From: an uncultured Actinomycetes bacterium
Lineage (GTDB): Bacteria; Actinomycetota; Actinomycetes; Nanopelagicales; Nanopelagicaceae
Direction of reading: 5' to 3'
Assembly: GCA_903875815.1 (NCBI GenBank)
Contig: CAIQXR010000088.1
Location: forward strand, 1 to 25,816
Length of the DNA stretch: 25,816 nt
Below the pieces are notes generated by a model. The model did no database searches. It saw only the letters and a program-made list of their open reading frames with translations, and was not told the DNA's origin. The first letter of the stretch is position 1. The number at the start of each line of letters is the position of its first letter. Shown in pieces: positions 8,230 to 25,438 of the stretch. The translations under genes and the position numbers were made by a program.

Positions 8230-8249
8230 GGCGGCTCCGCTTAAACTCA

Positions 8250-8278: not shown

Positions 8279-8283
8279 TCACC

Positions 8284-9381: not shown

Positions 9382-9418
9382 TAACCAGCTAGTTCAGTAG
9401 TACCGCATTACGGTGTAT

Positions 9419-9450
9419 TGGCCGGCGGGGGAGTGATTTCTCGCCGGCCA
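9419..9450 (+). terminator. Intercistronic hairpin between binding-protein and permease genes
   Basis: TGGCCGGCG (9419-9427) pairs perfectly with CGCCGGCCA (9442-9450) around a 14-nt loop. No U-run follows (TTACATTGC), so it is more likely a partial terminator or a 3' RNA-stabilising element that keeps the binding-protein message in excess over the membrane components, as in other binding-protein operons. Confidence 0.6.
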
Positions 9451-9548
9451 TTACATTGCTTACATGGCCTAATTTCATCGCTTTTCTTTCAGATTCAATT
9501 AGACTCATTTACATCACATTCATGACACGTCGACGGAGGCCGTATCCG

Positions 9549-10517: not shown

Positions 10518-10519
10518 TC

Positions 10520-11284
10520 ATGACAAATAAATCGCAACCACTCTACGAAGTTCGCAATATCTCCAAGCGCTATGGCTCGGTCGTTGCCCTGGAAGATGTA
10601 TCGCTCCAGATCTATCCCGGCGAAGTCATCGGCCTTGTAGGCGACAACGGTGCAGGTAAGTCCACGCTGGTCAAGGCGCTCTCTGGTGCGCATCAACCCT
10701 CTTCGGGAGAAATTCTGCTCGAAGGTAAGCCGGTCGTCTGGAAGTCACCACACGATGCATTGGAAGCTGGCATTGAGACGCTCTACCAGGACTCCGGTCT
10801 AGCCCCTGATCTCTCAGTAAGTGCCAACGTCTTTCTCGGTCGCGAGAAGACGGTACGAGGAATTCTTGGAAAGTTTGGTTTCCTCTCTCAAAAGGTGATG
10901 GATACACAAGCACATAAGGATCTCGAAGCCGTTGGAATTGCTGTTCCCGCATCCAATCGTTCCGTCTCCCAACTCTCTGGCGGTCAGCGCCAGGCAGTGG
11001 CGATTGGTCGAGCCGTGTCATGGGCAAGCAAGGTAATTATTTTGGATGAACCCACCAATCACTTGGGCGCGCGTCAGGCTGGAGAAGTACTTCAGATCAT
11101 CAAGCGCGCGAAAGAGCGTGGTCTTGGAGTTATCTTTATCTCGCACACCTTGCCACATGTGTTGCAAGCAACGGATCGCATTGTTGTTCTTCGATTGGGC
11201 AAAGTTGTTGCTGATGCACCCACCTCATCATTTGATGCCGAAAAATTGCTCGGAACAATCACTGGTCTGATCGAAGCGCATTAA
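10520..11284 (+). CDS. Sugar ABC transporter ATPase, single nucleotide-binding domain (FrcA-like)
   Basis: Cytoplasmic ATPase that powers the importer. Walker A GDNGAGKST at 41-49, Q-loop Gln90 (TLYQDSG), signature LSGGQ at 152-156, Walker B VIILDEP at 172-178 and H-loop His209 are all intact. At 254 residues it has one ATPase domain. RbsA/XylG-type proteins carry two fused domains (~500 residues), so this is the fructose-system (FrcA) type and must act as a homodimer. The GGAGTAAGGA sequence before the ATG overlaps the permease 3' end, so coupling is likely. Confidence 0.92.
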   Translation: MTNKSQPLYEVRNISKRYGSVVALEDVSLQIYPGEVIGLVGDNGAGKSTLVKALSGAHQPSSGEILLEGKPVVWKSPHDALEAGIETLYQDSGLAPDLSVSANVFLGREKTVRGILGKFGFLSQKVMDTQAHKDLEAVGIAVPASNRSVSQLSGGQRQAVAIGRAVSWASKVIILDEPTNHLGARQAGEVLQIIKRAKERGLGVIFISHTLPHVLQATDRIVVLRLGKVVADAPTSSFDAEKLLGTITGLIEAH

Positions 11285-11296
11285 CTTTTCGAAACC

Positions 11297-12337
11297 ATGA
11301 CACTTTCCCATAAGCCGGTAACACCTCGACCACGCGCGACCATGCGCGATGTTGCCGAGCGTTCCGGTACGAGCTTGAAGACCGTCTCTCGCGTCGTTAA
11401 CGAAGAAGAGGGCGTATCGCAGGAATTGATCGATCGCGTGAAAGAGGCGATCAATGAACTGGATTATCGACCCAATCTCTCGGCCGGAGCTTTGCGTCGT
11501 AATGACGGCAAGACTCAGACCATCGGACTGCTCGTGGAGAACATCTCCAACCCATTCTCTTCGGCACTGCATCGAGCCATCGAAGAGGTAGCGCGCGCTC
11601 GGGGAGTAGTGGTTTTTGCTGGATCGCTCGATGAAGATCCACAACGTGAACGTGAACTCACTGCAGCTTTTGCCGCCCGGCGAGTAGATGGCCTGATCGT
11701 GGTGCCGGCAGGGGATGACCAGAGTTATCTTCTCACTGAGCGTGAAGCGGGCACTGCGCTCTTGTTTGTTGACCGACCACCTCATGGTCTTATCGGCGAC
11801 ACCGTTCTCTCAACAAATATTGAAGGCGCTCAGCAAGCAGTGAAGCATTTAATTTCACACGGCCATAAAAAGATCGCCTACATCGGCGACTATGCCACGA
11901 TTCATACTGGTGCGGAACGTCTTGAGGGCTATAAGCGAGCTCTCAAGGGCTCAGGTATTTCGATTAGTGATAAATATATTCTTCAAGGATTTCACACCAG
12001 TGAAGAGGCTCGGATTGCCTTACGAGGTCTACTCACTTCGAGCGATGCGCCCACTGCTGTCTTCGCCAGCCAGAATTTAGTCACGTTAGGCGCGATTCGC
12101 GCCCTCCGCGATTTGCATTTAAGTCACTCGGTAGCGCTAGTTGGCTTTGATGATATTCCGGAGGCCGATCTTCTTGATCCACCGGTCACACTTGTCACGC
12201 AGGATGTCGCTGCGATGGGGGAGCGAGCTGCAGATTTGCTCTTCGCCCGCCTAGATGGCGATGACTCGGATTACATGCATATCGAGATTGAGACAACGCT
12301 TACTGCGCGCGGTTCGGGTGAAATCCTTCCTCGCTAA
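11297..12337 (+). CDS. LacI-family transcriptional regulator of the sugar ABC operon
   Basis: A 346-residue repressor with an N-terminal HTH (MRDVAERSGTSLKTVSRVVN, residues 16-35) and hinge helix NLSAGALRR. A periplasmic-binding-protein-like sensor domain follows (IGLLVENISNPFSSAL through VALVGFDDIPEADLLDPPVTLV). It follows the ATPase gene by 12 bp, so it is probably transcribed with the transporter it controls. The two TGACAnCGnTGTCA sites at 8251 and 8284 are its likely operators, which would also make it autoregulated. No Shine-Dalgarno sequence is visible before the ATG at 11297. A TAACTT box 9 nt upstream could give a near-leaderless transcript. The ATG at 11342 is an alternative start. 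Confidence 0.9.
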   Translation: MTLSHKPVTPRPRATMRDVAERSGTSLKTVSRVVNEEEGVSQELIDRVKEAINELDYRPNLSAGALRRNDGKTQTIGLLVENISNPFSSALHRAIEEVARARGVVVFAGSLDEDPQRERELTAAFAARRVDGLIVVPAGDDQSYLLTEREAGTALLFVDRPPHGLIGDTVLSTNIEGAQQAVKHLISHGHKKIAYIGDYATIHTGAERLEGYKRALKGSGISISDKYILQGFHTSEEARIALRGLLTSSDAPTAVFASQNLVTLGAIRALRDLHLSHSVALVGFDDIPEADLLDPPVTLVTQDVAAMGERAADLLFARLDGDDSDYMHIEIETTLTARGSGEILPR

Positions 12338-12433: not shown

Positions 12434-13030
12434 TTAGATCTCTGAATCAGTCGCCACTCTGCGAAGGTGCGCGAATCCGAGTAGAGCGAGGATCAAGAAG
12501 ATGATGCCGCCAGCGAAACAAACATAACTAGCGATAATCGCGATCGATCCAAGGACGCTAAAGGCGTAAGAGAATCCGAGTAGCCCGCGAAGTGTGTCTC
12601 CCATAAAGAGGGTCTGGCGAACTCCGCCGAGAGCACCTGCCTTTGCGGCCAAGGTGGCATCTTTAGGATTCGCTTGGGCAGCGGCATTAGCCGCCATGAA
12701 TTCTCCAGATACTTCCTCGTAAGTCTTTCCTTGACCAATTCCGTTCATATGAACGGCGATGTAATGGTTCGCCCAGGTGTTTGCCTGCGCTCCAGTTGTC
12801 ATTGTCATGCCAGCATATTTCTTCATCGCTGCTGCATCGGCGGCGGGAAGTGCTGTGATGGATGCTGAATCAGCGGCTGGGAAGACAATCTTCTGCTGAG
12901 AGAGCTGATCCTTTACTTGGCTATTGGCAAAGTTGCCACCCCATTGAAGTAGTGCTCCCGCTGCTACAAATAGCACGGCCAATAAAATTCCGATATTGCT
13001 AGCAATTTTGTCGAATTGTTTTCTGTTCAT
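12434..13030 (-). CDS. Conserved membrane protein with two TM segments and an extracytoplasmic domain
   Basis: A 198-residue protein without assigned function. One TM helix (about 12-30, IGILLAVLFVAAGALLQWGG) is followed by an outside domain of about 120 residues and a C-terminal hydrophobic region (about 150-185). The outside domain contains SQVKDQLSQQKIVFPAAD, MKKYAGMTMTTGAQANTWANHYIAVHM and GQGKTYEEVSGEF. This pattern is widespread in actinobacteria, where such proteins are often mislabelled as a ring-opening dioxygenase LigA; no catalytic features support that name. AGGAG 6 nt upstream of the ATG at 13028-13030 decides the start over an in-frame ATG at 13105. Confidence 0.75.
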   Translation of the reverse strand: MNRKQFDKIASNIGILLAVLFVAAGALLQWGGNFANSQVKDQLSQQKIVFPAADSASITALPAADAAAMKKYAGMTMTTGAQANTWANHYIAVHMNGIGQGKTYEEVSGEFMAANAAAQANPKDATLAAKAGALGGVRQTLFMGDTLRGLLGFSYAFSVLGSIAIIASYVCFAGGIIFLILALLGFAHLRRVATDSEI

Positions 13031-13116
13031 GTCGCTCTCCTGTTCTTTGGCCGGTTTATTCCGGCTTCCTAAGGAGATAGTGCTCGCAAACTCTTTCTCA
13101 CACACCCAAAAAGGTG

Positions 13117-15338: not shown

Positions 15339-16808
15339 CTAGAGCGCTACGCCGCCTTCAGCTTCGACAAGTGAATCTTTGCCGACGTTGATGGTGAAGG
15401 CAGTAACGATTGCTGCGATCAACAAGAATCCTGCACCGTAAATAAAGGTGGTGGAGAAGCCATGCACCTGAGCAAATACCTGAACTTTGGCACCCAGCGC
15501 TTTATGGGAATTCGCATAGGACGATGCTGAAGAGATGGCGACAGTATTGAGTAGAGCAGCGCCGAGTGAGCCACCGATCTGCTGGCTGGTATTGAGAACT
15601 GCGCTTGCTACACCAGCATCGTGCTCGCCGGCATTGTGGAGGCCAGTGCTCGCTGATGGGATGAAGAAGAGTGCAAGTCCCGACGACATCACAACGAGCG
15701 CAGGAAGGATTGCGGTTGTGTATGAGGATGTTGGGGTGATGCGTGAGAGGAAGAGCAATCCCGCTGCGCCAGCGATGAGGCCAGTCACCATCAGTGGTCG
15801 AGGTCCGACCTTAGGCAAAAGTTGTGAACCGATTCCGGCGAAGACGATGACGCCCATAGAGAACGGAAGGAAGGCAAAACCGGACCGGAGTGATGAGTAA
15901 TGCAAGAAACTCTGCATGTAGATGGAGAGGAAGAGGAACATTGCGAAGAGTCCGGTGCCCACCAAGAGTGAACCTAAGTAGGAGCCACCGCGGTTGCGTT
16001 CGGTAAGAACGCGAAGTGGGAGAAGTGGATTCGCAACTCGCTTTTCGATGATGAAGAAGGTGAGAAGGAAGATCGCAGCAATAATGAAGAACTTGTAGGT
16101 GGAGAAATTACCCCAGCCATGTCCAGCTGCTTGGCTAAATCCATACACAAGTGAAACGAGTCCGAGGGTCACAGAGACCGCGCCCGGAATGTCGTAGCTG
16201 CGATTTCCTGGTGCCTTTGATTCATGGATAAATGGAATGGCAAGAAGCACGGCAATGATTGCGATGGGAACGTTAACGCCGAGGCACCAGCGCCAGTTAG
16301 CGTATTCAGTAAGTGTTCCACCCAAGATCAGACCAATAGCGGCGCCGCCACCGGAGATGGCGCCGTAGACGCCAAAAGCACGGGCACGCTCTTTGGGAAC
16401 AGTGAAAGTGACGTTAATGAGTGAGAGTGCTGCTGGCGCAAGAAGTGCACCGAATGCACCCTGCAAGCCGCGCGCAGTGAAGAGAAGTCCCTGGGTAGAG
16501 GCGATGCCTCCGAGGCCGGAAGCGGCTGCAAAACCAATTAATCCCACGATGAAGATCTTCTTGCGACCCACGAAGTCAGCGATACGACCGCCGAGCAGAA
16601 GTAGTGATCCGAAAGCGAGTGAATAAGCAGTGACTACCCACTGACGGTTGGCGTCAGAAATGTGGAGCGCCTTTTGCGCACTAGGGAGAGCAATGTTGAC
16701 GATCGAGGCATCGAGCACAACCATCAAGGAAGCGATGGCAATAACCATCAGCGCGCGCCAGCGATTGGGATCTAATCCATTTTCATCTAAGACAGGCTTA
16801 TTCGACAT
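15339..16808 (-). CDS. MFS exporter, DHA2 family (14 TM, EmrB/QacA-like)
   Basis: Proton-driven drug or metabolite exporter of 489 residues with about 14 hydrophobic segments. DHA2 signatures are present: motif D1-like SLMVVLDASIVNIALPS in TM1, WVVTAYSLAFGSLLLLGGRIADFVGRKK (motif A with RIADFVGRK), RGLQGAFGALLAPAALSL and the antiporter motif GAISGGGAAIGLILGG. ATG at 16806-16808 (MSNKP) is chosen because GGAG lies 6 nt before it; a start 8 codons upstream lacks this. No linked TetR regulator is visible. Substrate unknown. Confidence 0.9.
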   Translation of the reverse strand: MSNKPVLDENGLDPNRWRALMVIAIASLMVVLDASIVNIALPSAQKALHISDANRQWVVTAYSLAFGSLLLLGGRIADFVGRKKIFIVGLIGFAAASGLGGIASTQGLLFTARGLQGAFGALLAPAALSLINVTFTVPKERARAFGVYGAISGGGAAIGLILGGTLTEYANWRWCLGVNVPIAIIAVLLAIPFIHESKAPGNRSYDIPGAVSVTLGLVSLVYGFSQAAGHGWGNFSTYKFFIIAAIFLLTFFIIEKRVANPLLPLRVLTERNRGGSYLGSLLVGTGLFAMFLFLSIYMQSFLHYSSLRSGFAFLPFSMGVIVFAGIGSQLLPKVGPRPLMVTGLIAGAAGLLFLSRITPTSSYTTAILPALVVMSSGLALFFIPSASTGLHNAGEHDAGVASAVLNTSQQIGGSLGAALLNTVAISSASSYANSHKALGAKVQVFAQVHGFSTTFIYGAGFLLIAAIVTAFTINVGKDSLVEAEGGVAL

Positions 16809-16924
16809 TAATCTCTCCAGGTATTGGGTCATTGTGATTGAAAGAGGGCTCTAGCCCAGCCCGTATTCTCTCCCATTTCGGACGAGATTTCTCGATGGAG
16901 CGCGCTCGGAAGATGAGCAGAAAG

Positions 16925-17662
16925 TTAAATGGCGATGAGATTTGTGTTCAAAGTGGCGCGAGTAACTTCCAGAATCTGATGATTGGGGATATTGGTCCAA
17001 CCAGCCTGATCCCAACCGCTTGAGGCGGCAATGATGCCCTTGGAGTCGGCTCGGTATGCCAAGTCATAATACCCAGGACCTTCATCATCAGGGATTTTGG
17101 CATCGTTATGTTCGCAGATTGTGAAGAAATATTCTGGGGTGAGAAGCATGGCGTTGATGCTCGAGTAGTTGTCTTGTGCAGCAATCGCTCGCACTGCGGC
17201 GACAATTCCCTCGCGCAGGCCCAGCTTACGAACTTGCGTAACGATGGCGAAGAAATATTTCTCGCTATCAGTTTCACCGCGCATCTCGGGGATGAGATCG
17301 GCATCGATGAATTTATCGAGTGAATGAGGCGGGTTGATAGATCCGTTATGAATAAAACTCATATCCTCGAAAGTAAATGGGTGAGTGTTACCTTCTGAGA
17401 TCGCTAAGCCGAGAGTTGCCCACCGCAAGTGAAGTAGGGCGCCATCGGATTCAAGTGATTTCGATGTCTCAGCAAAGAGTGGACTTTCCTTCGCCCGTCC
17501 TGGTTCAAGAATGAGGGTTGCCTCGCTCGCGCTATCAATGGAGGAGATGCCCCAGCCATCACCATGTTTCGCTGACAGCGCCGTAAATTCAGTAAAAGCA
17601 GGACCGGCGATGTCAGAGATTGTTTCCGAGTGATCGGAGACATAACCCATGAGGCGGCACAT
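16925..17662 (-). CDS. Class II glutamine amidotransferase (EgtC/YafJ-like Ntn hydrolase)
   Basis: An Ntn-type amidase domain of 245 residues standing alone, with Cys2 as the nucleophile after Met removal (MCRLMGYV). Supporting residues are HGDGWG (33-38), Arg80 in LHLRWATLG, FIHNGSI (Asn106-Gly107) and ETDSE near 130-134. No synthetase partner domain is attached. The related EgtC hydrolyses a gamma-glutamyl bond in ergothioneine synthesis, and here the gene is third in an operon after a gamma-glutamyl ligase-like protein and an aldehyde dehydrogenase. It is therefore a candidate for releasing glutamate from a gamma-glutamylated intermediate. That role is inference. A TAAAGT box 6 nt upstream suggests it also has its own leaderless start. 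Confidence 0.85.
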   Translation of the reverse strand: MCRLMGYVSDHSETISDIAGPAFTEFTALSAKHGDGWGISSIDSASEATLILEPGRAKESPLFAETSKSLESDGALLHLRWATLGLAISEGNTHPFTFEDMSFIHNGSINPPHSLDKFIDADLIPEMRGETDSEKYFFAIVTQVRKLGLREGIVAAVRAIAAQDNYSSINAMLLTPEYFFTICEHNDAKIPDDEGPGYYDLAYRADSKGIIAASSGWDQAGWTNIPNHQILEVTRATLNTNLIAI

Positions 17663-17668
17663 ATCTGA

Positions 17669-17674
17669 ACTTTA
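17669..17674 (-). promoter_or_regulatory. -10 box of a probable leaderless promoter (class II amidotransferase)
   Basis: On the minus strand TAAAGT is followed by TCAGAT and the ATG at 17662. It lies inside the 21-bp gap after the aldehyde dehydrogenase gene, so it would be an internal promoter. Confidence 0.4.
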
Positions 17675-17683
17675 TCCTGTGAC

Positions 17684-19048
17684 TTAGCTCTGGGTGTCGA
17701 AGAAGACGTTCTTGGTCTCGGTAAATGCGTCGAGCGCATCGGGGCCGAGCTCGCGGCCAAGTCCGGATTGCTTGTATCCACCAAATGGCGTCCAATAGCG
17801 GACCGATGAGTTGGAATTGACGGAGAGGTTGCCTGCTTCAACTCCGCGCGAGACTCGCACTGCCCGGCCAATATCGCGCGACCAGATCGATCCCGACAAG
17901 CCATATTCGCTCTCGTTGGCAAGACGGATGGCATCTGCCTCATCAGTAAAGCGTAAGACGGAAACAACTGGACCAAAGACTTCTTCACGGTAGGCGCGAT
18001 CACTGGAATCTTTGGGAGTGAGTACGGTTGGTGCAAACCAATAGCCAGGACCGGCTGGCTTTGAGCCTTGGAAGGCGATGGGGGAGCCAGCAGGTAGGAA
18101 ATCACTCACGCGATCGAATTGAATTTTGGAAATCAACGGTCCCATCTCGCTACTTTCCTGCGAAGGATCTCCGACGACAAATTTCTTTACCGCAACTTCG
18201 AATTTCTCCATGAAGGAGTCGTAGACGTTGGCTTGCACCAAAATTCGAGAACGCGCGCAGCAATCTTGACCAGCATTGTCGAAGACGCCTCCGGGCGCTC
18301 CAGCTGCGGCCTTTTCGATATCGGCATCATCAAAAATAATATTGGCGCTCTTTCCGCCAAGTTCTAACGTCACGCGTTTTACTTGTTCAGCTGCACCCCG
18401 CATGATCTGCTTGCCAACGCGAGTGGAACCAGTAAAGACAATTTTGCGAACTAAAGGATTGGTGACGAAGCGTTCACCGACAACACTGCCGGCACCAGGA
18501 ATGACATTGAAAACGCCGTCAGGGATTCCTGCTTCGAGGGCGAGTTCGCCGAGTCGAATCGCAGTGAGTGGTGTGTACTCGGCGGGCTTTAATACGACAG
18601 TATTTCCAGCAGCGAGTGCTGGTGCGAAACCCCAAGCAGCAATAGGCATAGGGAAGTTCCAAGGAACAATAATTCCCACAACTCCGAGCGGTTCTTTAAA
18701 GGTGATATCGATGCCATTAGGGACCGGAATTTGGCGGCCAAAGAGGCGCTCGGGTGCGGCGCTGTAGTAATTGAGAAGGTCGCGAACATTGCCTGCCTCC
18801 CAACGGGCATTGCCAATCGTGTGTCCAGCGTTAAGTACTTCGAGTTGTGCCAGCTCTTCGTTGTGGGAATCGACTAAAGCCGCAAATGTGCGAAGCAACT
18901 TGGCACGGTCTCCTGGCGTTACCTTCTTCCAACTTTCGAATGCGTTCTGCGCCTTCAGGATGGTGGCATCAGTCTGGGCGAGATCAGCTAAGGCAATCTC
19001 CTTAATGGGTTGCTCGGTAACTGGGCTGATGATCGTGTAGTTAGACAT
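17684..19048 (-). CDS. NAD(P)-dependent aldehyde dehydrogenase (AldC/PuuC-like)
   Basis: Oxidises an aldehyde to the acid. The 454 residues are slightly short for the family (about 480). Asn131 in PWNFP, Lys154 in KPAEYTP, the GSTRVGK turn near 207-213, catalytic Glu229 in LELGG and catalytic Cys263 in GQDCCARSR are intact. EEVFGPV and PFGGYKQSGLGRELG are present near the C-terminus. It lies 59 bp after the GS-like gene and 21 bp before the class II amidotransferase gene on the same strand. The position matches aldC in the mycobacterial glnA4 region. The probable substrate is a gamma-glutamyl-amino-aldehyde. The ribosome site AGGAG is 11 nt from the ATG, so translation may be moderate. Confidence 0.92.
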   Translation of the reverse strand: MSNYTIISPVTEQPIKEIALADLAQTDATILKAQNAFESWKKVTPGDRAKLLRTFAALVDSHNEELAQLEVLNAGHTIGNARWEAGNVRDLLNYYSAAPERLFGRQIPVPNGIDITFKEPLGVVGIIVPWNFPMPIAAWGFAPALAAGNTVVLKPAEYTPLTAIRLGELALEAGIPDGVFNVIPGAGSVVGERFVTNPLVRKIVFTGSTRVGKQIMRGAAEQVKRVTLELGGKSANIIFDDADIEKAAAGAPGGVFDNAGQDCCARSRILVQANVYDSFMEKFEVAVKKFVVGDPSQESSEMGPLISKIQFDRVSDFLPAGSPIAFQGSKPAGPGYWFAPTVLTPKDSSDRAYREEVFGPVVSVLRFTDEADAIRLANESEYGLSGSIWSRDIGRAVRVSRGVEAGNLSVNSNSSVRYWTPFGGYKQSGLGRELGPDALDAFTETKNVFFDTQS

Positions 19049-19107
19049 GGATTCTCAATCTCCTATTGGGGGGCGAACTCTTGGTTATGGTCGAAAAGGG
19101 GAGGGCG

Positions 19108-20457
19108 TTACATGCGTTCGAAGCCGCGGAAGCGCTCCCAATCGGTAACGGCCTTTCCAAAGGCATCAAGTTCAGTATCGGCCATGTGGGTGTAATGCTT
19201 CTGGACATCTTCACCGAAAGTCTCTTTCACCCAAGCGCTATGCGCCCAGAGATCGCGAGCTTCTTGCAGTGAGGTAGGAACGCGAGAAGTTTCTAGCGCA
19301 TAAGCGTTTCCGGTGAAGATGGGCTCGAGGACGCTCTTCTTCTCGATGCCATCAAGGCCGGCCGCAATCATTCCTGCGACAGCGAGATATTGATTGACAT
19401 CGCCACCCGGCACTCGATTTTCGATGCGCAAGCTATGTCCTTGGCCAACCAAGCGAAGAGCGCAAGTGCGATTATCGCGACCCCACTTCAGAGCAGTTGG
19501 AGCAAATGTTCCATATTGGTAGCGCTTGTAGGAATTGATATTCGGCGCAAAGAGAAGTGTCAGTTCACGCATGTGGGCGTGGATACCCGCCAGGTAATTA
19601 CGCCCGAGTTCTGACATACCATCACCAGCATCGCCCGCAAGTACTGCCTCGCCACTCTTGCTTCGGAAGGAGAGGTGGATATGGCATGAGTTTCCTTCGC
19701 GCTCATTAAATTTTGCCATAAAGGTTAGTGAACAGCCTTGTTGCGCAGCGATCTCTTTCGCTCCCATTTTGTAAATCGAATGGTTATCACAAGTGGTCAA
19801 GGCATCTTCGTATCGAAAAGCGATTTCGTGCTGACCGAAGTTGCATTCGCCCTTAGCAGACTCAACGATCAACCCGGCTTTATCCATTTGGAGGCGAATT
19901 TCTCGGAGCAGCTTCTCCACTCGGGAAGTGCCGATTAGGGAGTAGTCGACGTTGTATTGGTTTGCGGGGATGAGATCCTTGTAGCCCTTATCGAATGCTT
20001 CTTCATACGTGTCTTTGAAGACGATAAATTCGAGTTCGGTTCCGCAGAGCGCGACCATTCCCGCGGCATCGAGTCGCGCCAATTGCTTTTTGAGAATGCT
20101 GCGTGGTGCAACCGAGACATCGTGCTTGTGGTGATCCACAAAGTCCGCAGTGACCATGGCGGTGCCGGGATGCCATTCAAGTTTGCGAACAGTGTTGAAA
20201 TCAGGATGCATTCCCATATCGGCATAACCGGTATCCCAGTTGGAGACGTCATAGCCCTGGACAGTATTCATGTCGATATCGACGGCGAGGAGGTAGTTGC
20301 AACCTTCAGTGCCGTTAGCAATGGTGTCGGCTAAGAAGAAGGGGGCGTGGATGCGCTTGCCCTGGAGGCGACCCTGCATATCGGTGGCTCCTACAACGAC
20401 GGTATCAATCGTTCCGTTCGCAATATCTTTCTTGAGCTCTTCCAGACTGTAGGACAT
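19108..20457 (-). CDS. Glutamine-synthetase-like gamma-glutamyl-amine ligase (GlnA4/GlnA3 type)
   Basis: ATP-dependent ligase that would join glutamate to an amine. The 449-residue GS fold has its metal and ATP residues: ELEF (Glu141, Glu143), KGECNFGQHEIAF (Glu204, Glu211), GNSCHIHLS (His259) and LRIENRVPGGDVN (Arg344, Glu346). The NANQYNVDYS-type segment (PANQYNVDYSLIG, 164-176) and the lack of a GSI-beta adenylylation tyrosine motif near the C-terminus separate it from housekeeping GlnA. It closely recalls actinobacterial GlnA4. S. coelicolor GlnA4 is a gamma-glutamylethanolamide synthetase and GlnA3 acts on polyamines; I cannot tell the substrate by eye. GAGGG precedes the ATG. First gene of the operon with the dehydrogenase and amidotransferase. 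Confidence 0.88.
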   Translation of the reverse strand: MSYSLEELKKDIANGTIDTVVVGATDMQGRLQGKRIHAPFFLADTIANGTEGCNYLLAVDIDMNTVQGYDVSNWDTGYADMGMHPDFNTVRKLEWHPGTAMVTADFVDHHKHDVSVAPRSILKKQLARLDAAGMVALCGTELEFIVFKDTYEEAFDKGYKDLIPANQYNVDYSLIGTSRVEKLLREIRLQMDKAGLIVESAKGECNFGQHEIAFRYEDALTTCDNHSIYKMGAKEIAAQQGCSLTFMAKFNEREGNSCHIHLSFRSKSGEAVLAGDAGDGMSELGRNYLAGIHAHMRELTLLFAPNINSYKRYQYGTFAPTALKWGRDNRTCALRLVGQGHSLRIENRVPGGDVNQYLAVAGMIAAGLDGIEKKSVLEPIFTGNAYALETSRVPTSLQEARDLWAHSAWVKETFGEDVQKHYTHMADTELDAFGKAVTDWERFRGFERM

Positions 20458-20718
20458 GGGACCCTCTCGGCTAGTAACCAGTGGCTTGGCTGCTGGTCAA
20501 TGCTTGAGGTTAACGGCGCAGGAGATGGCGTTCAAGGGGGAAGGGGAAATTTCGGGGTTTTGGGCCGTGAAGCAAAAAACCCAGGCCTTTTGGGGGCACG
20601 GAGGAGCCTTTGTTACGGGAAATTAACAAAAATTAATAAAAAAGAATGGTGAGATCCTTTAAAAAGGGTGAGACGAGGGCCACACTTATGGGAACTTCTA
20701 GGAAGGGTGTATCGATAC
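20458..20718. promoter_or_regulatory. Divergent promoter region between ligase and permease genes
   Basis: This 261-bp gap must hold both promoters of the amine cluster. Seen in it: an imperfect repeat ACCAG...CTGGT (20476-20496 area) near a minus-strand TTGACC; a GGGTTTT/AAAACCC hairpin (20555-20582); and an AT-rich block (about 20618-20645). On the minus strand the hairpin area includes CCCA-n7-TGGG followed by six T, a weak attenuator shape in the ligase leader. Next to the permease lies ATCCTTT-AA-AAAGGGT, six of seven pairs matching. None is strong enough to call an operator. Confidence 0.4.
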
Positions 20719-22209
20719 ATGTCCAATGTTCATGATGCCGATGCCGCGAAATTAGCGGAACTTGGCTACAAACAAGAGTTCGAACGTAAATGGTCTGGCT
20801 TCCATAACTTTGCCATCTCCTTCTCCATCATCTCCATCCTCTCGGGCTGCTTCACCACATTCGCCCAAGCATGGAACAACGGTGGACCCGTTGCGATCTC
20901 CGTAGGTTGGCCAATCATCGCCGGCCTGATCATGCTCATTGGTCTGACCATGGCAGAACTCGTCTCTGCGATGCCTACTGCAGGTGGAATTTATTATTGG
21001 GCGCTCAATCTTGGTAAGCCAATTCATGGTTGGGTTACCGGTTGGCTTAATCTCATCGGCCTGATCACCGTAACTGCCGGTGTGGATTATGGCTTCGCAA
21101 ACTTCTTCACCTTTACCGCAAGCCTCTATTCAAAGAGTTTTGATCCAGGCAATCTCCACACTATCTTCCTCATCTTCGCGATTACTCTCGTCATTCACAT
21201 TGCCATGAATATCTGGGGCGCAAAGATCATTCACCAGCTCCAGGGAATCAACGTCTGGGTTCACGTCTTTGGTGTTGCTGCGATCATTGTGATCTTGATC
21301 CTGATCCCGTCACATCACCAGAGCTCCCACTGGGTCTTTACTCATCAAATTAATAACAGTGGCTTCTCCAATCACGCTTTCTGGATCTACGTTCTTCCAT
21401 TGGGCTTCTTGCTCACCCAGTACACGATTACTGGCTTTGATGCTTCAGCTCACGTGTCGGAGGAAACCGGTCAAGCAGGTAAAGCTGCAGCACAAGGATT
21501 GTGGAAGTCGATTGCATACTCAGCGGTTGCTGGTTGGATCCTCCTCCTCTCATTCCTTTATGCGTCCACCGACGAAGCAGCAATTACTAAGGGCGGCGGC
21601 TTTGTTGCCACCATCTTCACCACTGCAGTTTCCAGCGGTTGGGCAAAGTCCATTTTGATCATCACCTGCCTCGGACAATTCTTCTGCGGCATGTCATGTA
21701 TCACTGCTGGTTCTCGCATGCTCTTTGCATTCTCACGTGACCGCGCAGTCCCAGGTCATAAGGTCTGGACCAAAGTTGATAAGAATCGCAACCCATCGAA
21801 CGCTGCCTTCGGACTAGGTATTGCGGCGCTGATCGTCACTATTCCTGCTCTCTGGTCAGCAGTGGCATTCTTCGCCGTTACTTCGATGGCAGTAATCGGT
21901 CTCTTTGGTTCATTCGCAATTCCTATCTGGTTGCGTTGGCGCAAGGGCGATGCCTTCAAGCAAGGTGAGTGGAACTTGGGTAAGAAGTGGAAGTGGATGG
22001 CGCCTCTAGCTGTTCTCGAGATCGTCGTGGTCTCGGTCTACTTCATCATGCCAACCACACCAGCTGGCGTTCCTTGGGGCAAGAGCTTTGATATCAAGGC
22101 TGCTAACTACACCCCAGTGACCTTCGTCGTCGTTCTTGGCGGAGCGCTTCTCTGGTGGGTACTTGGCGCAAAGAAGCACTTCAAGGGACCTGTTCGTACC
22201 CTCGATTAA
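20719..22209 (+). CDS. APC-superfamily amine/amino-acid permease (ACT or GABA-permease type)
   Basis: Membrane importer of 496 residues with about 12 TM helices. It begins with a short soluble segment (MSNVHDADAAKLAELGYKQE), then FERKWSGFHNFAISFSIISILSG in TM1. Hallmarks of the amino acid/choline transporter group follow: AELVSAMPTAGGIYYWA in TM2-3, TGFDASAHVSEETGQAGKAA mid-protein (ASAHVSEET) and SRMLFAFSRDRAVPGHKVW. The ATG at 20719 is chosen from GGAAGGG about 9-10 nt upstream; a GTG at 20668 would add 17 unlikely residues. Divergent from the ligase operon, it is the probable uptake system for the pathway's amine substrate. The family also includes GABA, choline and ethanolamine permeases. 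Confidence 0.9.
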   Translation: MSNVHDADAAKLAELGYKQEFERKWSGFHNFAISFSIISILSGCFTTFAQAWNNGGPVAISVGWPIIAGLIMLIGLTMAELVSAMPTAGGIYYWALNLGKPIHGWVTGWLNLIGLITVTAGVDYGFANFFTFTASLYSKSFDPGNLHTIFLIFAITLVIHIAMNIWGAKIIHQLQGINVWVHVFGVAAIIVILILIPSHHQSSHWVFTHQINNSGFSNHAFWIYVLPLGFLLTQYTITGFDASAHVSEETGQAGKAAAQGLWKSIAYSAVAGWILLLSFLYASTDEAAITKGGGFVATIFTTAVSSGWAKSILIITCLGQFFCGMSCITAGSRMLFAFSRDRAVPGHKVWTKVDKNRNPSNAAFGLGIAALIVTIPALWSAVAFFAVTSMAVIGLFGSFAIPIWLRWRKGDAFKQGEWNLGKKWKWMAPLAVLEIVVVSVYFIMPTTPAGVPWGKSFDIKAANYTPVTFVVVLGGALLWWVLGAKKHFKGPVRTLD

Positions 22210-22241
22210 TACCGAGCAGGGATATATGTAAGTAAGTGGTC

Positions 22242-22276
22242 AAGCCGCTTCGTTCCAGATTGGAGCGAAGCGGCTT
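22242..22276 (+). terminator. Strong hairpin between permease and SDR genes
   Basis: AAGCCGCTTCG (22242-22252) pairs perfectly with CGAAGCGGCTT (22266-22276). The stem extends inward by TTCC/GGAG (one G-U) to a 5-nt loop, 15 bp in all. No run of T follows, only TTACTTAATT, and the SDR ribosome site starts 10 nt later. It may be a partial terminator or a processing element; outer TAAGT/ACTTA copies could lengthen the stem with a bulge. Confidence 0.6.
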
Positions 22277-22296
22277 ACTTAATTGAAGGAGTAGAT

Positions 22297-23061
22297 ATGG
22301 GTCGGGTAGAAAATAAAGTTGCCCTCGTTACTGGAGCGGGATCAGGTATCGGAGCAGCGAGTGCCATTCGTTTGGCAGAGGAAGGTGCGATCGTCTATTG
22401 CGGTGACATCAACCGTGATTCAGCTGCTGCAACAGTGGTGCAGATTCTCTCAGCCGGCGGAAAAGCTTTTGCTGCCCCGATCGACATTAGTTTGTCCACC
22501 GAATGCGATGCACTGATTGCCAAAATCGTCGTAGAGTCGGGTGGAATCGATATTTTGGTCAATAATGCGGGGGTTAATTTGCCCAGCGTTTTTCATGAGA
22601 CGACCAATGAGGCCATTGATAAAACTCTGAACGTCAATGTCAAAGGCGCCATGTATTTAACACGCGCGAGTCTGCCTCATATGTTGAAATCAGGAAGTGG
22701 TTCGATCGTCAATATGTCCAGCGTTAATGGAATTGTCTCCGAACCATTCTTGAGTGTGTACTCAGCATCTAAGGGTGCGATTGTGATGTTCACGAAGGGA
22801 ATCGCTTTGGATTACGCCAAGCAGGGCGTGCGTTGTAATGCGATCTGTCCTGGTTGGGTGGATACACCGATTAACTATGCCCACGCAGATATGTTGGGCG
22901 GACTCGATCATGTGTATAAGACCATCGATTCGTTCCAGCCAATTGGCCGTCCTGGAACACCTCGCGAGATTGCGAACTTGGTTCTCTTCTTGGCTTCGGA
23001 TGAGTCATCCTTTATGACTGGATCCATCGTTTCTGCTGACGGCGGTATGACTGCGCAGTAG
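22297..23061 (+). CDS. Short-chain dehydrogenase/reductase of the amine cluster
   Basis: Classical SDR of 254 residues. Glycine motif TGAGSGIG at 12-19, Asp37 after the second strand (YCGDINR), which favours NAD over NADP, NNAG at 89-92, and catalytic Ser141/142, Tyr155 and Lys159 (YSASK). GWVDTP and the terminal DGGMTAQ are typical. AAGGAG 6 nt before the ATG supports the start. The Rv2857c SDR occupies a matching place beside glnA4/aldC in M. tuberculosis. It probably oxidises the hydroxyl group of a gamma-glutamyl-amino-alcohol to the aldehyde used by the linked dehydrogenase. That step is inferred from context. Confidence 0.88.
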   Translation: MGRVENKVALVTGAGSGIGAASAIRLAEEGAIVYCGDINRDSAAATVVQILSAGGKAFAAPIDISLSTECDALIAKIVVESGGIDILVNNAGVNLPSVFHETTNEAIDKTLNVNVKGAMYLTRASLPHMLKSGSGSIVNMSSVNGIVSEPFLSVYSASKGAIVMFTKGIALDYAKQGVRCNAICPGWVDTPINYAHADMLGGLDHVYKTIDSFQPIGRPGTPREIANLVLFLASDESSFMTGSIVSADGGMTAQ

Positions 23062-23072
23062 AGTCGGGAGAG

Positions 23073-23783
23073 TCAGGAAATAAGCCGACCCCACTCTTGC
23101 ACGATGGGCTTCCATGTTGAGATCAGCTCGCTTTCGGCTGCTGCGACCTCGGATTCAACACTGGATTTTCCGGATTCAATGAAGGCATTATCAGCATGCT
23201 CTTCCCAGGTATGAATGATTGATGCATCAATTTCTGGGTGGAATTGAACGGCATAGCTCTTGCTGCCTACTCGGTAGACCTGATTAGTGCAGAGATCACT
23301 GCTCGCTAGCAAAGTGGCGCTGGCGGGGAGTTTGGAAACGTAATCTTCGTGCCACTGGGCGACTGGAAGTGAACCTGCGAAATTGAAGAGCGGATCTTGG
23401 GCAGATGCCGCGGTGGATTGGATTGAATAGATTCCAATCTCTGATACCGATGCTCGGGAGACTTCACCGCCGGTGGCAGCCGCAAGAAGTTGCGCTCCTA
23501 AACAGATGGCAAAGATGGGAATATCTCGATCCACGGCATCTTTGAGAAGAGCGCGCTCGGCTGGTAACCATGGCGCAACATGATCATCCATCGCGCCCAT
23601 ATGTCCGCCGAGTGGCATGAGCGCATGGATATCCGCTGGAACGGTCGTGGGAACTTCTTCACCGTCATAAGCGCGCAGAATTTTGATGGCGTAACCCAAT
23701 TCCATTAACCATCGACCCGCGAGATGTGGGGGATCGGTAGGATCATTTTGAATTGCGAGAATAGTCTTGCCAGTTGCGGTCAT
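23073..23783 (-). CDS. Class I glutamine amidotransferase-like protein (GMP synthase-type GATase domain)
   Basis: Standalone class I amidase domain of 236 residues. The nucleophile elbow ICLGAQLL places Cys94, and the His182/Glu184 pair lies in AVQFHPEI, giving a complete Cys-His-Glu triad. PLGGHMGAMDD (57-67) is the oxyanion-side glycine loop. It is not fused to a synthetase. PuuD, which cleaves gamma-glutamyl-GABA, is also a class I-type hydrolase, and Rv2859c beside glnA4 is a similar amidotransferase, so a gamma-glutamyl hydrolase role fits. It is convergent with the SDR gene (11-bp gap) and divergent from the aminotransferase gene. Confidence 0.85.
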   Translation of the reverse strand: MTATGKTILAIQNDPTDPPHLAGRWLMELGYAIKILRAYDGEEVPTTVPADIHALMPLGGHMGAMDDHVAPWLPAERALLKDAVDRDIPIFAICLGAQLLAAATGGEVSRASVSEIGIYSIQSTAASAQDPLFNFAGSLPVAQWHEDYVSKLPASATLLASSDLCTNQVYRVGSKSYAVQFHPEIDASIIHTWEEHADNAFIESGKSSVESEVAAAESELISTWKPIVQEWGRLIS

Positions 23784-23817
23784 GGCGTTATCTTCTCACT
23801 TCACAACGGAGATTTGA

Positions 23818-23835
23818 ACTTTTTTTTAAAAAAGT
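23818..23835. repeat. AT-rich inverted repeat near the class I amidotransferase start
   Basis: ACTTTTTT (23818-23825), TT, AAAAAAGT (23828-23835): eight-bp perfect arms. It lies 35 bp upstream of the minus-strand amidotransferase ATG. Confidence 0.4.
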
Positions 23836-23922
23836 CCAGCGCCATCACGCGGGAAATACTTCAAACTCGCCGAATCTCAGCATTTATGGCTTAAAAAATG
23901 GCGCTCTGCTACCTTTGGAGTC

Positions 23923-23937
23923 AAGCATCCGATGCTT
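23923..23937. promoter_or_regulatory. 15-bp palindrome, possible operator
   Basis: AAGCATC, central C, GATGCTT: seven-bp perfect arms in the middle of the divergent amidotransferase/aminotransferase region, 70-85 bp before the aminotransferase start. Confidence 0.4.
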
Positions 23938-23972
23938 TATCACTGTTTTACCTGAGTTATACAAGGAAATGG

Positions 23973-23985
23973 AGAGTAGTACTCT
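23973..23985. promoter_or_regulatory. 13-bp palindrome just upstream of the aminotransferase -10
   Basis: AGAGTA, central G, TACTCT: perfect six-bp arms. It covers the -35 position relative to the TAGGGT box at 23992-23997, so a bound regulator would block or replace -35 contacts. Confidence 0.4.
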
Positions 23986-23991
23986 TAAAAA

Positions 23992-23997
23992 TAGGGT
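23992..23997 (+). promoter_or_regulatory. Possible -10 box of the aminotransferase gene
   Basis: TAGGGT fits TAnnnT and ends 11 nt before the ATG at 24009, predicting a leader of only a few bases. No good -35 is present, and there is no clear ribosome site. Confidence 0.3.
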
Positions 23998-24008
23998 ACT
24001 TATTCGAA

Positions 24009-25400
24009 ATGGCTACAGCCCTCAACAATCAAACATATAGAAATTTACCGCTCAACTCCGAGCCCGTCTCGCGCGAAACCGTTGCTCGCCTCATGAAGGC
24101 GGAGTGGGAGCGTTTTACCAAAGATACTGCTAACTCCGGCATCGAATCAGATATCGCTCAGAAGAGCATCCCCATGGGTGTGCCTTCGAGCTTCCAATAT
24201 TGGGATCCTTATCCCATCAGCATCACCGGCGCGAAGGGCGCCTATATGACCGATGTCGACGGTCGCCAACTACTCGATCTCTCGATGGGCTTCGGCGCCA
24301 TGCTCGCCGGCCACCTCAATCCAACAGTGGTATCTGAAATTCAAGGCGCGCTGGGAAATGGCATGCTCTTTGTAACGCCTTCTCCTATCTCACGCGATGC
24401 CGCCGAGCGAGTCTGCCGTCGTTTTGGAATCGATCAGGTTCGTTTCACTAACTCTGGTACTGAATCCACCATGTATGCGATTCGTACCGCAAAAGCATTT
24501 AATGGCCGCGAAGGAATTGTGAAACTTGAGGGCGGCTACCACGGTAGTCATGACTCGCTCACGGTTTCAGCAAAGCCAGATCTCAATTTAGCTGGTGACC
24601 CAGAAGATCCCACCCCAGTTCCATCAGAAGGAACTAATCCAGGTCTTGTCTTCGTGGTTCCTTTCAATAATCTTCCAGCGCTCGAGCGGGTATTTGCGGC
24701 GCATCATAAAGAGATTGCTTGCTTTATCTTGGAGCCAGTTCTCGAAAACCTGGGAATTGTTCTGCCTGATGCCGGATACCTTCAGTCGGTCCGTGAACTT
24801 TGCGATAAGTACAACATCATCCTTATCTTCGATGAAGTGAAGACTGGCCTCACCGCTGGAACAAAGGGCGCAGCAGCTCGCATCGGTGTAAAGCCAGATT
24901 TAATCTGTTTAGCTAAATCGATTGGCGGCGGCGTTCCTGTTGCGGCTTTCGGTGGCAAGAAAGAGATTATGGATGCAGTTACTGATAACCGCATGGCGCA
25001 CTTCGGTACCTTCAACGGTAACCCACTTGCTATGGCCGGTGTTCGTGCGATCGACATGATCTGTACTGATGAAGCTCTAGCGCAAGCAGAGGCGCTTAAT
25101 TATCAGGCCCTTGATCGCATCACAGCAATTATCGAGGAGTATCGCCTTCCCGCCCAGACCGTTGGATTTGGCGTTAAAGGTTGCATTACTTGGGCAGTGG
25201 ATCCAGTTCGCAACTATCGCGATTACAAGGCAACGGACTTCGAAGTGGCTGAGCTTTCTTGGCTCTGGTCACTCAACCGCGGCATCATCACCCCTCCGGG
25301 ACTCGATGAGCAATGGTTGATTTCTCTCGCCCACACCCAGAAAGAGATCGATATGTTGGTCGAGGATTTCCGCGAGTTGGCGGCAGCGCTTCGTTCCTAA
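24009..25400 (+). CDS. Class III PLP aminotransferase, HemL (glutamate-1-semialdehyde aminomutase)-like
   Basis: Fold-type I PLP enzyme of 463 residues. SIPMGVPSSFQYWDPYPISI (53-72) matches the start of the HemL-like group. SGTES (149-153) and HGSHD (178-182) bind the cofactor phosphate and ring, FDEVKTG has Asp275, and Lys303 in LAKSIGGG is the Schiff-base lysine. FGTFNGNPLA lies near 338-347. Canonical HemL has about 430 residues and would normally sit with heme genes; this one stands beside amine-catabolism genes. It is more likely an omega-amino acid or beta-amino acid aminotransferase. ATG at 24009 is preferred over an upstream frame (23898) whose added residues lack family similarity. 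A palindromic terminator follows. Confidence 0.85.
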   Translation: MATALNNQTYRNLPLNSEPVSRETVARLMKAEWERFTKDTANSGIESDIAQKSIPMGVPSSFQYWDPYPISITGAKGAYMTDVDGRQLLDLSMGFGAMLAGHLNPTVVSEIQGALGNGMLFVTPSPISRDAAERVCRRFGIDQVRFTNSGTESTMYAIRTAKAFNGREGIVKLEGGYHGSHDSLTVSAKPDLNLAGDPEDPTPVPSEGTNPGLVFVVPFNNLPALERVFAAHHKEIACFILEPVLENLGIVLPDAGYLQSVRELCDKYNIILIFDEVKTGLTAGTKGAAARIGVKPDLICLAKSIGGGVPVAAFGGKKEIMDAVTDNRMAHFGTFNGNPLAMAGVRAIDMICTDEALAQAEALNYQALDRITAIIEEYRLPAQTVGFGVKGCITWAVDPVRNYRDYKATDFEVAELSWLWSLNRGIITPPGLDEQWLISLAHTQKEIDMLVEDFRELAAALRS

Positions 25401-25409: not shown

Positions 25410-25438
25410 AAAAGCCCCTGAATATTCAGGGGCTTTTT
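25410..25438. terminator. Bidirectional rho-independent terminator
   Basis: Left arm AAAAGCCCCTGAAT (25410-25423) and right arm ATTCAGGGGCTTTT (25424-25437) form a perfect 28-bp palindrome, continuing to six T. Runs of A on one side and T on the other let it end transcripts from both the aminotransferase (+) and the ABC-F gene (-). Confidence 0.92.

What the first reader, a model, noticed from the sequence alone, without database searches (positions are those of the whole stretch)
16925..25400. Gamma-glutamylation amine-utilisation cluster with an expanded gene set
A GS-like ligase, aldehyde dehydrogenase and class II amidotransferase (minus strand), a divergent APC permease and SDR (plus strand), a class I amidotransferase and a class III aminotransferase are packed together. 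From established knowledge, M. tuberculosis carries glnA4 (Rv2860c), an amidotransferase (Rv2859c), aldC (Rv2858c) and an SDR (Rv2857c) side by side. Here the same four types appear with three extra genes: permease, class II amidotransferase and aminotransferase. Together they suggest a complete route: uptake, gamma-glutamylation, alcohol oxidation, aldehyde oxidation, removal of glutamate, final transamination. The whole pathway is inference.
Basis: partly seen in the sequence, partly recalled or inferred. Interest (0 to 1): 0.72.

Follow-up and report, generated by a model that had tools for sequence, protein, structure and literature searches.

The report
Freshwater ethanolamine-type gene cluster, rewired
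A probable freshwater actinobacterium carries a variant of a known gene cluster that likely eats ethanolamine-like amines by first tagging them with glutamate; here the tag-removing enzyme seems to have been replaced and the uptake-plus-oxidation gene pair looks swappable.

Summary
The seven genes are real, intact and at the stated coordinates. The ligase belongs with Streptomyces GlnA4 (63% identity) and keeps the residues published for GlnA4, including Phe in the ammonium site. Most of the "expanded set" is already in print: the Streptomyces ethanolamine cluster has ligase, aldehyde dehydrogenase, SDR, permease and an amidotransferase.

Three things differ here.
(1) The C26-type gamma-glutamyl hydrolase, near the ligase in 47 of 51 other fully flanked loci, is near it in 0 of 13 here and in 0 of 201 genomes of the order (control 4 of 4). 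A class II amidotransferase is present in 13 of 13; the window's clade adds a class I enzyme. This looks like non-orthologous replacement.
(2) The SDR and one permease subtype travel as a pair, exchanged repeatedly against the ligase (AU p 2e-61).
(3) The cassette, bracketed by the two amidotransferases, sits at three or more chromosomal sites.

The class III aminotransferase belongs to one site: it is there without the ligase and was not found at the other two. The final transamination step is therefore unsupported.

Verdict: a new variant of a known kind. Substrate and hydrolase assignment are inference; both amidotransferases also occur without the ligase.

The parts
16925..17662 (-). GAT2: class II (N-terminal Cys) amidotransferase, last gene of the ligase-ALDH-GAT2 run (21 bp after ALDH); proposed gamma-glutamyl hydrolase that replaces the C26 hydrolase
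   Evidence: Pfam PF13230; best NCBIfam model EgtC, 66.2 bits, below its cut-off of 218.65; Cys2, Arg80, Asn106-Gly107, Asp132 invariant in 18 rows; near the ligase in 13 of 13 fully flanked loci of groups A and B
17684..19048 (-). ALDH: aldehyde dehydrogenase, proposed gamma-glutamyl-aminoacetaldehyde to gamma-glutamylglycine step
   Evidence: PF00171 1.2e-156; next to the ligase in 23 of 24 loci of the window clade, the other (L124) being cut by a contig end
19108..20457 (-). GS-like ligase of the GlnA4 clade (gamma-glutamyl-amine synthetase, probably ethanolamine)
   Evidence: PF00120; nearest solved structures 11zs 393 and 5dm3 379 bits, next 156; 63% to Streptomyces loci with the GlnA4 layout; Phe318 where true synthetases have the ammonium-site Glu
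20458..20667 (.). 210-bp divergent intergenic region between ligase and permease; no regulator gene in the cluster
   Evidence: coordinates; promoter-like matches not above shuffles; GntR-type regulator of the canonical loci found in 0 of 24 window-clade loci
20668..22209 (+). APC-family permease, subtype X (start perhaps 20719)
   Evidence: PF13520; permease tree splits X (10 rows) from Y (20 rows), 100/100
22297..23061 (+). Window-type SDR, proposed to oxidise the alcohol of the gamma-glutamylated amine; linked to permease subtype X
   Evidence: PF13561; copies of at least 77% in 7 of 23 clade genomes; found with 9 of 10 subtype-X and 0 of 20 subtype-Y permeases
23073..23783 (-). GAT1: class I amidotransferase (PF00117, not the C26 hydrolase); second proposed gamma-glutamyl amide hydrolase, possibly a safety valve
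   Evidence: PF00117 2.5e-17; Cys94, His182, Glu184 in columns at least 97% identical; in 23 of 23 window-clade genomes
23898..25400 (+). Class III aminotransferase (start perhaps 24009): a neighbour from chromosomal site I, not counted as part of the pathway
   Evidence: PF00202; at site I with or without the ligase, not found at sites II and III
25410..25437 (.). 12-pair palindrome, terminator-like on both strands, between the aminotransferase and the opposing ABC-F gene
   Evidence: the number of terminator-like sites in the region is not above shuffles

Best explanation
This is a variant, in probable freshwater actinobacteria, of the GlnA4 ethanolamine (or close amino-alcohol) utilisation cluster. 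Proposed route: the APC permease imports the amine. The GlnA4-type ligase spends ATP to join it to the gamma-carboxyl of glutamate. The SDR oxidises the alcohol and the ALDH the aldehyde, giving gamma-glutamylglycine. An amidotransferase-family hydrolase then releases glycine and regenerates glutamate. The last step is done not by the C26 (PuuD-like) hydrolase used elsewhere but by the class II, N-terminal-cysteine enzyme GAT2, with the class I enzyme GAT1 as partner or safety valve. The SDR and its permease form an exchangeable entry pair. Shown here: gene content, ligase clade and active-site residues, recurrence, absence of C26, linkage of SDR and permease. Inferred: substrate, order of steps, the role of each amidotransferase.
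For: Ligase: 63% to two Streptomyces, an Actinokineospora and an Amycolatopsis locus. The Streptomyces order, with C26 amidotransferase, permease and GntR-type regulator upstream of ligase-ALDH-SDR, is the order of genes in the published glnA4 figure legend (PMC6529630). That paper lists the metal, glutamate and ADP residues of GlnA4 and Phe in place of E327. The S. coelicolor sequence is not held; counted by a constant offset, the matching window residues are Glu141, Glu143, Glu204, Glu211, His259, Glu346, Glu254, Gly255, Arg312, Arg348, His261, Arg335 and Phe318, invariant in all 8 rows aligned. Recurrence. Hydrolase swap: of 51 fully flanked loci among L009-L080, 47 have C26 near the ligase and 1 has GAT2 (L014, itself without C26); of 13 fully flanked loci of the window clade and of L126-L130, 0 have C26 and 13 have GAT2. 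C26 in 0 of 201 genomes, control 4 of 4, one of them the query's own genome. GAT2 in 88 of 92 ligase-positive and 49 of 109 ligase-negative genomes.
Against: GAT2 and GAT1 persist without the ligase (both in G034, G040, G063, G069; GAT2 alone beside miaB or the aminotransferase in others), so they are not dedicated to this pathway. GAT1 is missing near the ligase outside the window's clade (0 of 69). Nine of 23 clade genomes have neither SDR type, so the alcohol step there is unexplained, or the substrate is not always an amino alcohol. No regulator is linked. The Fisher p (4e-16) is not corrected for kinship, completeness of the genomes is not told, and at least two 'ligase-negative' genomes (G073, G115) are cut inside the cluster by contig ends. 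The D50 side of the ammonium site was not mapped. No enzyme has been assayed.
Confidence: 0.6

Rival explanations
1. Complete seven-gene route, ending in transamination by the class III aminotransferase, so that the amine is something like 3-aminopropanol or putrescine whose deglutamylated product is an omega-amino acid.
For: The aminotransferase is intact and adjacent in the window; it lies in the locus in 11 of 24 window-clade loci. Class III aminotransferases of this broad fold act on omega-amino acids (recalled).
Against: AT3 orthologs lie on another contig or over 50 kb away in G001, G002, G003, G006 and G011, 5 of the 9 genomes with a match of at least 70% (for G002 a contig break could hide adjacency). 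AT3 is at site I without the ligase beside it (L137-L139, L149, L150) and was found in 0 of 8 loci assigned to sites II and III, two of which end before that place. Its best named matches are glutamate-1-semialdehyde aminomutase models, below cut-off, and chains. For ethanolamine the product is glycine, which needs no class III aminotransferase.
Confidence: 0.1
2. GAT1 and GAT2 have nothing to do with the ligase: they are a scavenging pair for other gamma-glutamyl compounds (or genuine glutamine amidotransferases), and the cluster uses an unlinked hydrolase.
For: GAT1 and GAT2 are directly adjacent (matched parts 21-31 bp apart) in four genomes without a ligase hit and in two with the ligase elsewhere. 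GAT2 sits in the miaB-trmD neighbourhood in ligase-negative genomes. GAT2 is found in 49 of 109 ligase-negative genomes.
Against: The cassette carries GAT1 and GAT2 at three different chromosomal sites. GAT2 is also next to the ligase in the rearranged layout of L126-L130 and in L014. C26 and GAT2 were never found together near the ligase.
Confidence: 0.25
3. The substrate is not ethanolamine but another small amine, and different cassettes take different amines, the permease-SDR pair setting the choice.
For: Two deeply split permease subtypes, one tied to the window-type SDR, swap against the ligase. Two SDRs about 35% alike, or neither, accompany otherwise alike cassettes.
Against: The ligase is close to GlnA4 throughout, with unchanged active-site residues in the rows aligned; GlnA4 of S. 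coelicolor gamma-glutamylates ethanolamine in vitro (PMC6529630, start of abstract, section heading).
Confidence: 0.3
4. Ordinary glutamine synthetase paralog in a chance gene neighbourhood.
For: Where the 120 listed relatives of the ligase have a name, it is glutamine synthetase or a general label.
Against: The ammonium-site Glu is Phe; scores for type I and type III synthetase models are far below cut-off; the cluster recurs; a second GS homolog lies about 8 kb away in L007, L008, L122 and L125, and a family copy in L144 is a type I glnA above cut-off.
Confidence: 0.03

Closest known systems
GlnA4 (SCO1613) ethanolamine cluster of Streptomyces (PMC6529630; passages and section 7 read)
   Same: Ligase clade and active-site residues; adjacent ALDH; an SDR, an APC-family permease and an amidotransferase-family protein in the same cluster
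   Different: Here the C26 hydrolase is absent, with class II GAT2 and a different class I GAT1 instead; the SDR is not the orthologous one (about 35%); the permease is of another subfamily; no regulator gene; divergent layout. The paper calls orf5 a glutamine amidotransferase in one place and gives SCO1615 as a formylglutamate-amidohydrolase-family candidate in another
Ethanolamine gamma-glutamylation operon of Phaeobacter / Chromohalobacter salexigens (PMC10132767, passages read)
   Same: Ethanolamine gamma-glutamylase, aldehyde and alcohol dehydrogenases and a gamma-glutamylglycine amidohydrolase. The window ligase's second-best solved relative is 5dm3, recalled as the C. salexigens enzyme
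   Different: That operon uses a TRAP transporter and its own amidohydrolase; 5dm3 scores 379 bits against about 640-700 for full-length 63-69% ligases of the order
Actinomycete order ligase-C26-ALDH-SDR (L035 and L075 Kitasatospora, L078 Amycolatopsis, L079 Lentzea. The M. tuberculosis Rv2860c-Rv2857c run is recalled, not checked)
   Same: Same ligase and ALDH families
   Different: C26 hydrolase between ligase and ALDH; F1-type SDR; no GAT1, GAT2 or AT3 ortholog near the ligase
Aniline / 1-naphthylamine gamma-glutamylation (AtdA1-AtdA2, NpaA1-NpaA2; PMC11335346, passages read)
   Same: A GS-like ligase beside an amidotransferase-like enzyme that hydrolyses the gamma-glutamyl amide back, keeping it low: a model for GAT1
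   Different: Aromatic substrate and dioxygenase; no ALDH, SDR or permease named in the passages; ligase match 112 bits only (8wwu, recalled as NpaA1). GAT1 was not compared with AtdA2 by sequence
EgtC (ergothioneine pathway gamma-glutamyl amidohydrolase)
   Same: Class II family; best NCBIfam model for GAT2
   Different: 66.2 of 218.65 bits; against solved structures EgtC is only a marginal match (E about 0.004) and an unnamed class II domain protein, 3mdn, is better

Membership tests
GlnA4-type gamma-glutamyl-amine ligase | Closer to Streptomyces GlnA4-locus ligases than to true glutamine synthetases | tested here: met
   63% over nearly the full length; true GS solved structures at most 156 bits against 379-393 for the two nearest chains
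GlnA4-type gamma-glutamyl-amine ligase | E327 replaced by Phe; metal, glutamate and ADP residues kept | tested here: met
   Phe318 and the listed residues invariant in 8 of 8 rows; residue list from PMC6529630, mapped by constant offset; D50 and Y179 positions not mapped
GlnA4-type gamma-glutamyl-amine ligase | Makes gamma-glutamylethanolamide | not testable with these tools
   No assay possible
Streptomyces-type ethanolamine cluster | Adjacent ALDH | tested here: met
   Window ALDH 59 bp downstream; 23 of 24 clade loci
Streptomyces-type ethanolamine cluster | Orthologous (F1-type) SDR | tested here: not met
   51 of 51 fully flanked loci among L009-L080 have the F1 SDR near the ligase; the window locus does not and has another SDR
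Streptomyces-type ethanolamine cluster | C26 hydrolase near the ligase | tested here: not met
   47 of 51 fully flanked loci among L009-L080 against 0 of 24 window-clade loci; 0 of 201 genomes of the order
Streptomyces-type ethanolamine cluster | APC-family permease | tested here: inconclusive
   An APC permease is present, but not of the common Streptomyces subfamily F6; 40-54% to permeases of Kitasatospora, Actinokineospora and several other loci
Streptomyces-type ethanolamine cluster | Divergent repressor gene upstream of the ligase | tested here: not met
   GntR-type family (taken to be the paper's regulator) in 38 of 51 fully flanked loci among L009-L080 and 0 of 24 window-clade loci
EgtC | Reaches the NCBIfam EgtC cut-off | tested here: not met
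   66.2 bits against 218.65
PuuD / C26 gamma-glutamyl hydrolase (for GAT1) | PF07722 as the main domain | tested here: not met
   GAT1 PF07722 38.7 bits against PF00117 63.6; a canonical C26 protein (L062) gives PF07722 223.5

The most novel reading that the evidence does not exclude
A modular amine cassette. A constant core (GlnA4-type ligase, ALDH) is bracketed by two unrelated amidotransferases: a class II Ntn-type enzyme that has displaced the C26 hydrolase as terminal gamma-glutamylglycine hydrolase, and a class I enzyme as AtdA2-like safety valve. A swappable permease-SDR entry pair retunes which amino alcohol is used. The cassette moves between chromosomal sites and can be lost cleanly from between the two amidotransferases.
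Probability: 0.4. Interest if true: 0.6.

Novelty: new variant of a known kind. Interest (0 to 1): 0.42.

Why it matters
Ethanolamine from membrane lipids links carbon, nitrogen and phosphorus cycling, and its gamma-glutamylation route was described in Streptomyces (PMC6529630) and in a marine Roseobacter (PMC10132767). The cluster studied here lies in small-genome (about 1.1-2 Mb), probably freshwater actinobacteria. If right, it gives a named gene set for this step in lakes, shows another independent answer to the terminal deglutamylation problem (a class II enzyme instead of C26), and offers a natural set of cassettes, alike but for permease and SDR, in which substrate choice can be tested directly.

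Tried and rejected
Tried: promoter and terminator scan, counts not above shuffles; the 25410-25437 palindrome stands out only by eye. Alignment of the ligase upstream region gave no convincing conserved operator, and the window aligned poorly. First gene calls on high-GC loci by longest ORF were poor; replaced by a GC3-weighted caller. Idea that GAT2 belongs to a polyamine transport operon: rejected when its neighbours turned out to be miaB, miaA, dapF and hflX. Literature: six full-text searches. No title or abstract start in the capped listings (8-20 rows each) places a class II amidotransferase in this pathway or describes the pathway in Nanopelagicales. Only open-licence papers are held, so this is weak.

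Rejected: ordinary glutamine synthetase; the seven-gene unit; orthology of GAT1 with the C26 hydrolase.

Rows dropped: one search left out L033-L080 and L081-L110; one search kept rows with at least 60% query coverage; one search kept rows above identity floors of 34% (GAT2), 50% (GAT1) and 60% (AT3) and 85% coverage; one search gives counts both for all loci and for loci with 4.5 kb on both sides. L009-L080 are not all outside the order: L014 (G011) and L015 (G012) are in the 201-genome sample, and both lack C26 near the ligase. The subtype-X group tested was named from the permease tree and includes L112, which lacks a visible SDR.

Full report
OBSERVATION. The window's GC content is 0.48-0.55 throughout and no tRNA gene was found. 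The seven reading frames of the finding are present at the coordinates given, with the families named. Ligase, ALDH and GAT2 run on the minus strand with gaps of 59 and 21 bp; permease and SDR run on the plus strand with 87 bp between them; 210 bp separate the two divergent starts. GAT1 (minus) faces the SDR with 11 bp between stops. The aminotransferase AT3 starts 114 bp beyond GAT1 and ends before a 12-pair palindrome. An MFS permease (15339-16832) follows GAT2. The window's source is not told. Its closest named relatives are actinobacterial MAG contigs, some titled Nanopelagicales, and some relatives of the ligase come from freshwater metagenomes.

WHAT THE LIGASE IS. The ligase matches no curated synthetase model at cut-off. 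Against solved structures it scores 393 bits with 11zs and 379 with 5dm3, and 156 or less with all others; 5dm3 is, from memory, the C. salexigens enzyme of the ethanolamine operon cited in PMC10132767. Its relatives in named genomes include Streptomyces, Kitasatospora and Amycolatopsis loci at 61-63%. There the order is C26 amidotransferase, permease, GntR-type regulator, ligase, ALDH, SDR, or ligase-C26-ALDH-SDR. This is the gene set that PMC6529630 describes as the Streptomyces ethanolamine cluster (Fig. 2 legend and section 7). The paper lists the GlnA4 metal, glutamate and ADP residues and Phe in place of E327 (passage). Counted by a constant offset, the corresponding window residues, Phe318 included, are invariant in the 8 rows aligned, and the alignment to a true synthetase (8oow) shows Glu at that place. 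The S. coelicolor sequence itself was not held, and the D50 and Y179 positions were not mapped. So the ligase is a GlnA4-clade enzyme; ethanolamine is its likeliest amine.

HOW MUCH IS EXPANDED. A permease and an amidotransferase are part of the published cluster, so those are not additions in kind. At ortholog level the window differs (all counts). Of 72 loci L009-L080, 51 have 4.5 kb on both sides: all 51 have the F1-type SDR near the ligase, 47 a C26 hydrolase, 38 the GntR-type regulator and 1 a GAT2 relative (L014). The four without C26 are L013, L014, L015 and L037; L014 and L015 belong to genomes of the order sample below. Of 24 loci of the window clade 9 are fully flanked: all 9 have ALDH, permease, GAT1 and GAT2, 0 have C26 and 0 the regulator; 3 have the window-type SDR, 3 the F1 type, 3 neither; 5 have AT3 within 6 kb. 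Of 5 loci of a more distant group of the order (L126-L130, ligase 66-67%) 4 are fully flanked: 4 have GAT2 and 0 C26. C26 and GAT2 were never found together near the ligase.

GENOME-WIDE. In 201 genomes of the order of G007 (drawn evenly by the tool, unnamed, completeness not told) the ligase is found in 92 at E 1e-100, GAT2 in 137 at 1e-15, GAT1 in 50 at 1e-20 and C26 in 0 at 1e-25. The C26 query rang in 4 of 4 control genomes known to carry it, one being its own genome, and in 0 of 4 order genomes repeated at 1e-10. GAT2 is in 88 of 92 ligase-positive and 49 of 109 ligase-negative genomes and lies within 6 kb of the ligase in 73 of 92. GAT1 is in 23 of 23 genomes of the window clade (ligase at least 81%; 18 within 6 kb) and in 6 of 69 of the rest, none near. 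The Fisher p (4e-16) ignores kinship, and at least two ligase-negative genomes are cut by contig ends inside the cluster (L135, L136).

SITES. Marker genes around the cassette place 19 of the 24 window-clade loci at three chromosomal sites. Site I (ABC-F and AT3 on one side, SDR2-ECH on the other) holds 11, including the window; one of them (L111) is placed by AT3 alone, the other ten by further markers too. Site II (thiL on one side, a D-Ala-D-Ala ligase-like gene on the other; both names by eye, no call) holds 6. Site III (EamA and APC genes) holds 2. Five are unassigned: L114 and L116 end early, L120 shows no marker in about 3.8 kb beyond GAT2, and L006 and L123 carry permease-ligase-ALDH away from the amidotransferases, which lie with AT3 on another contig (L149, L150). 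Apart from which SDR is present, gene order between GAT1 and GAT2 is the same where it can be seen. AT3 is in all 10 loci placed at site I by other markers and was found in 0 of 8 at sites II and III (L002 and L112 end before that place). It is also at site I where the ligase is absent (L137-L139) or elsewhere (L149, L150). In whole genomes AT3 orthologs of at least 70% are found in 9 of 16 searched, on another contig or over 50 kb from the ligase in 5 of those 9 (for G002 a contig break could hide adjacency). AT3 is therefore best read as a resident of site I.

AMIDOTRANSFERASE PAIR. GAT1 and GAT2 abut (matched parts 21-31 bp apart) in G034, G040, G063 and G069, which have no ligase hit, and in G006 and G181, whose ligase is on another contig; a weaker pair is 190 bp apart in G196. 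The flanks of G063 and G069 match G003 on both sides; those of G034 and G040, whose contigs begin at or just before GAT1, match on the GAT2 side. In the GAT2 tree these four group with G003 (100/99). The SDR-permease-ligase-ALDH block is simply missing from between the two genes; this reads as clean loss, though gain by recombination is not excluded. In the more distant group GAT2 sits beside miaB-miaA-dapF-hflX, with or without the ligase. So GAT2 and GAT1 have some value without the ligase. This is the main result against a dedicated role and is kept as a rival. For the two-hydrolase arrangement a model exists: in aniline degradation the amidotransferase-like AtdA2 hydrolyses the gamma-glutamyl amide back, keeping it at a tolerable level (PMC11335346, passages).

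ENTRY PAIR. The permease tree splits into subtype X (10 rows) and Y (20 rows) with 100/100 support. The window-type SDR is with 9 of 10 X permeases (the tenth, L112, has both permease types in tandem and ends 3.2 kb upstream) and 0 of 20 Y permeases. On the ligase tree the X label needs 7 changes, at least 5 of them forced by well-supported branches, and holding X together costs 419 log units (AU p 2e-61; X was named from the permease tree). In G029 the ligase is 67% to the window's but permease and SDR are 79% and 78%; its permease pairs with that of G004 (100/99). So permease and SDR have been exchanged together against the ligase. In whole genomes the window SDR (at least 77%) is in 7 of 23 clade genomes and the F1 SDR in 8 of 23; one genome has both and nine have neither, though some of those nine have other SDRs of about 40% elsewhere. 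How those nine oxidise the alcohol, or whether they take another amine, is open.

ASSESSMENT. What is new, as far as six capped paper searches show, is the replacement of the C26 hydrolase by other amidotransferase-family enzymes in this order, and the exchange of the permease-SDR pair. Both are comparative inferences without an assay.

Noticed in passing
L131-L134 against L003: Relatives of G003 lack the SDR-permease-ligase-ALDH block exactly between GAT1 and GAT2, with matching flanks (both sides in L133, L134; GAT2 side in L131, L132): a natural empty site.
   Followed up: partly
L126, L127, L129, L130, L141-L143, L146, L147: A class II amidotransferase (GAT2 relative) lies beside the miaB-miaA-dapF-hflX genes, with or without the amine ligase; its role there is unknown.
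   Followed up: partly
L005, L115, L119 (G005, G044, G059) and six more genomes: Nine of 23 window-clade genomes carry the ligase without either SDR type; the alcohol-oxidising enzyme is unidentified.
   Followed up: partly
L112 upstream of the ligase: Both permease subtypes stand in tandem, possibly an exchange caught half-way; the contig ends just beyond.
   Followed up: no
window 6491-12334: A myo-inositol-1-phosphate synthase-like gene, then a sugar-type ABC importer (binding protein, permease, ATPase) and a LacI regulator, look like a separate sugar or inositol uptake locus.
   Followed up: no
window 12434-13105 (-): A 223-residue reading frame without any Pfam match.
   Followed up: no
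L014: A contig titled Streptomycetaceae belongs to a genome of about 1.3 Mb and carries the permease-ligase-ALDH-SDR-GAT2 layout, so the title is probably wrong.
   Followed up: no
L007, L008, L122, L125: A second GS homolog (about 30% to the ligase) lies about 8 kb from the cluster at site I; a family copy in L144 matches type I glnA above cut-off.
   Followed up: partly
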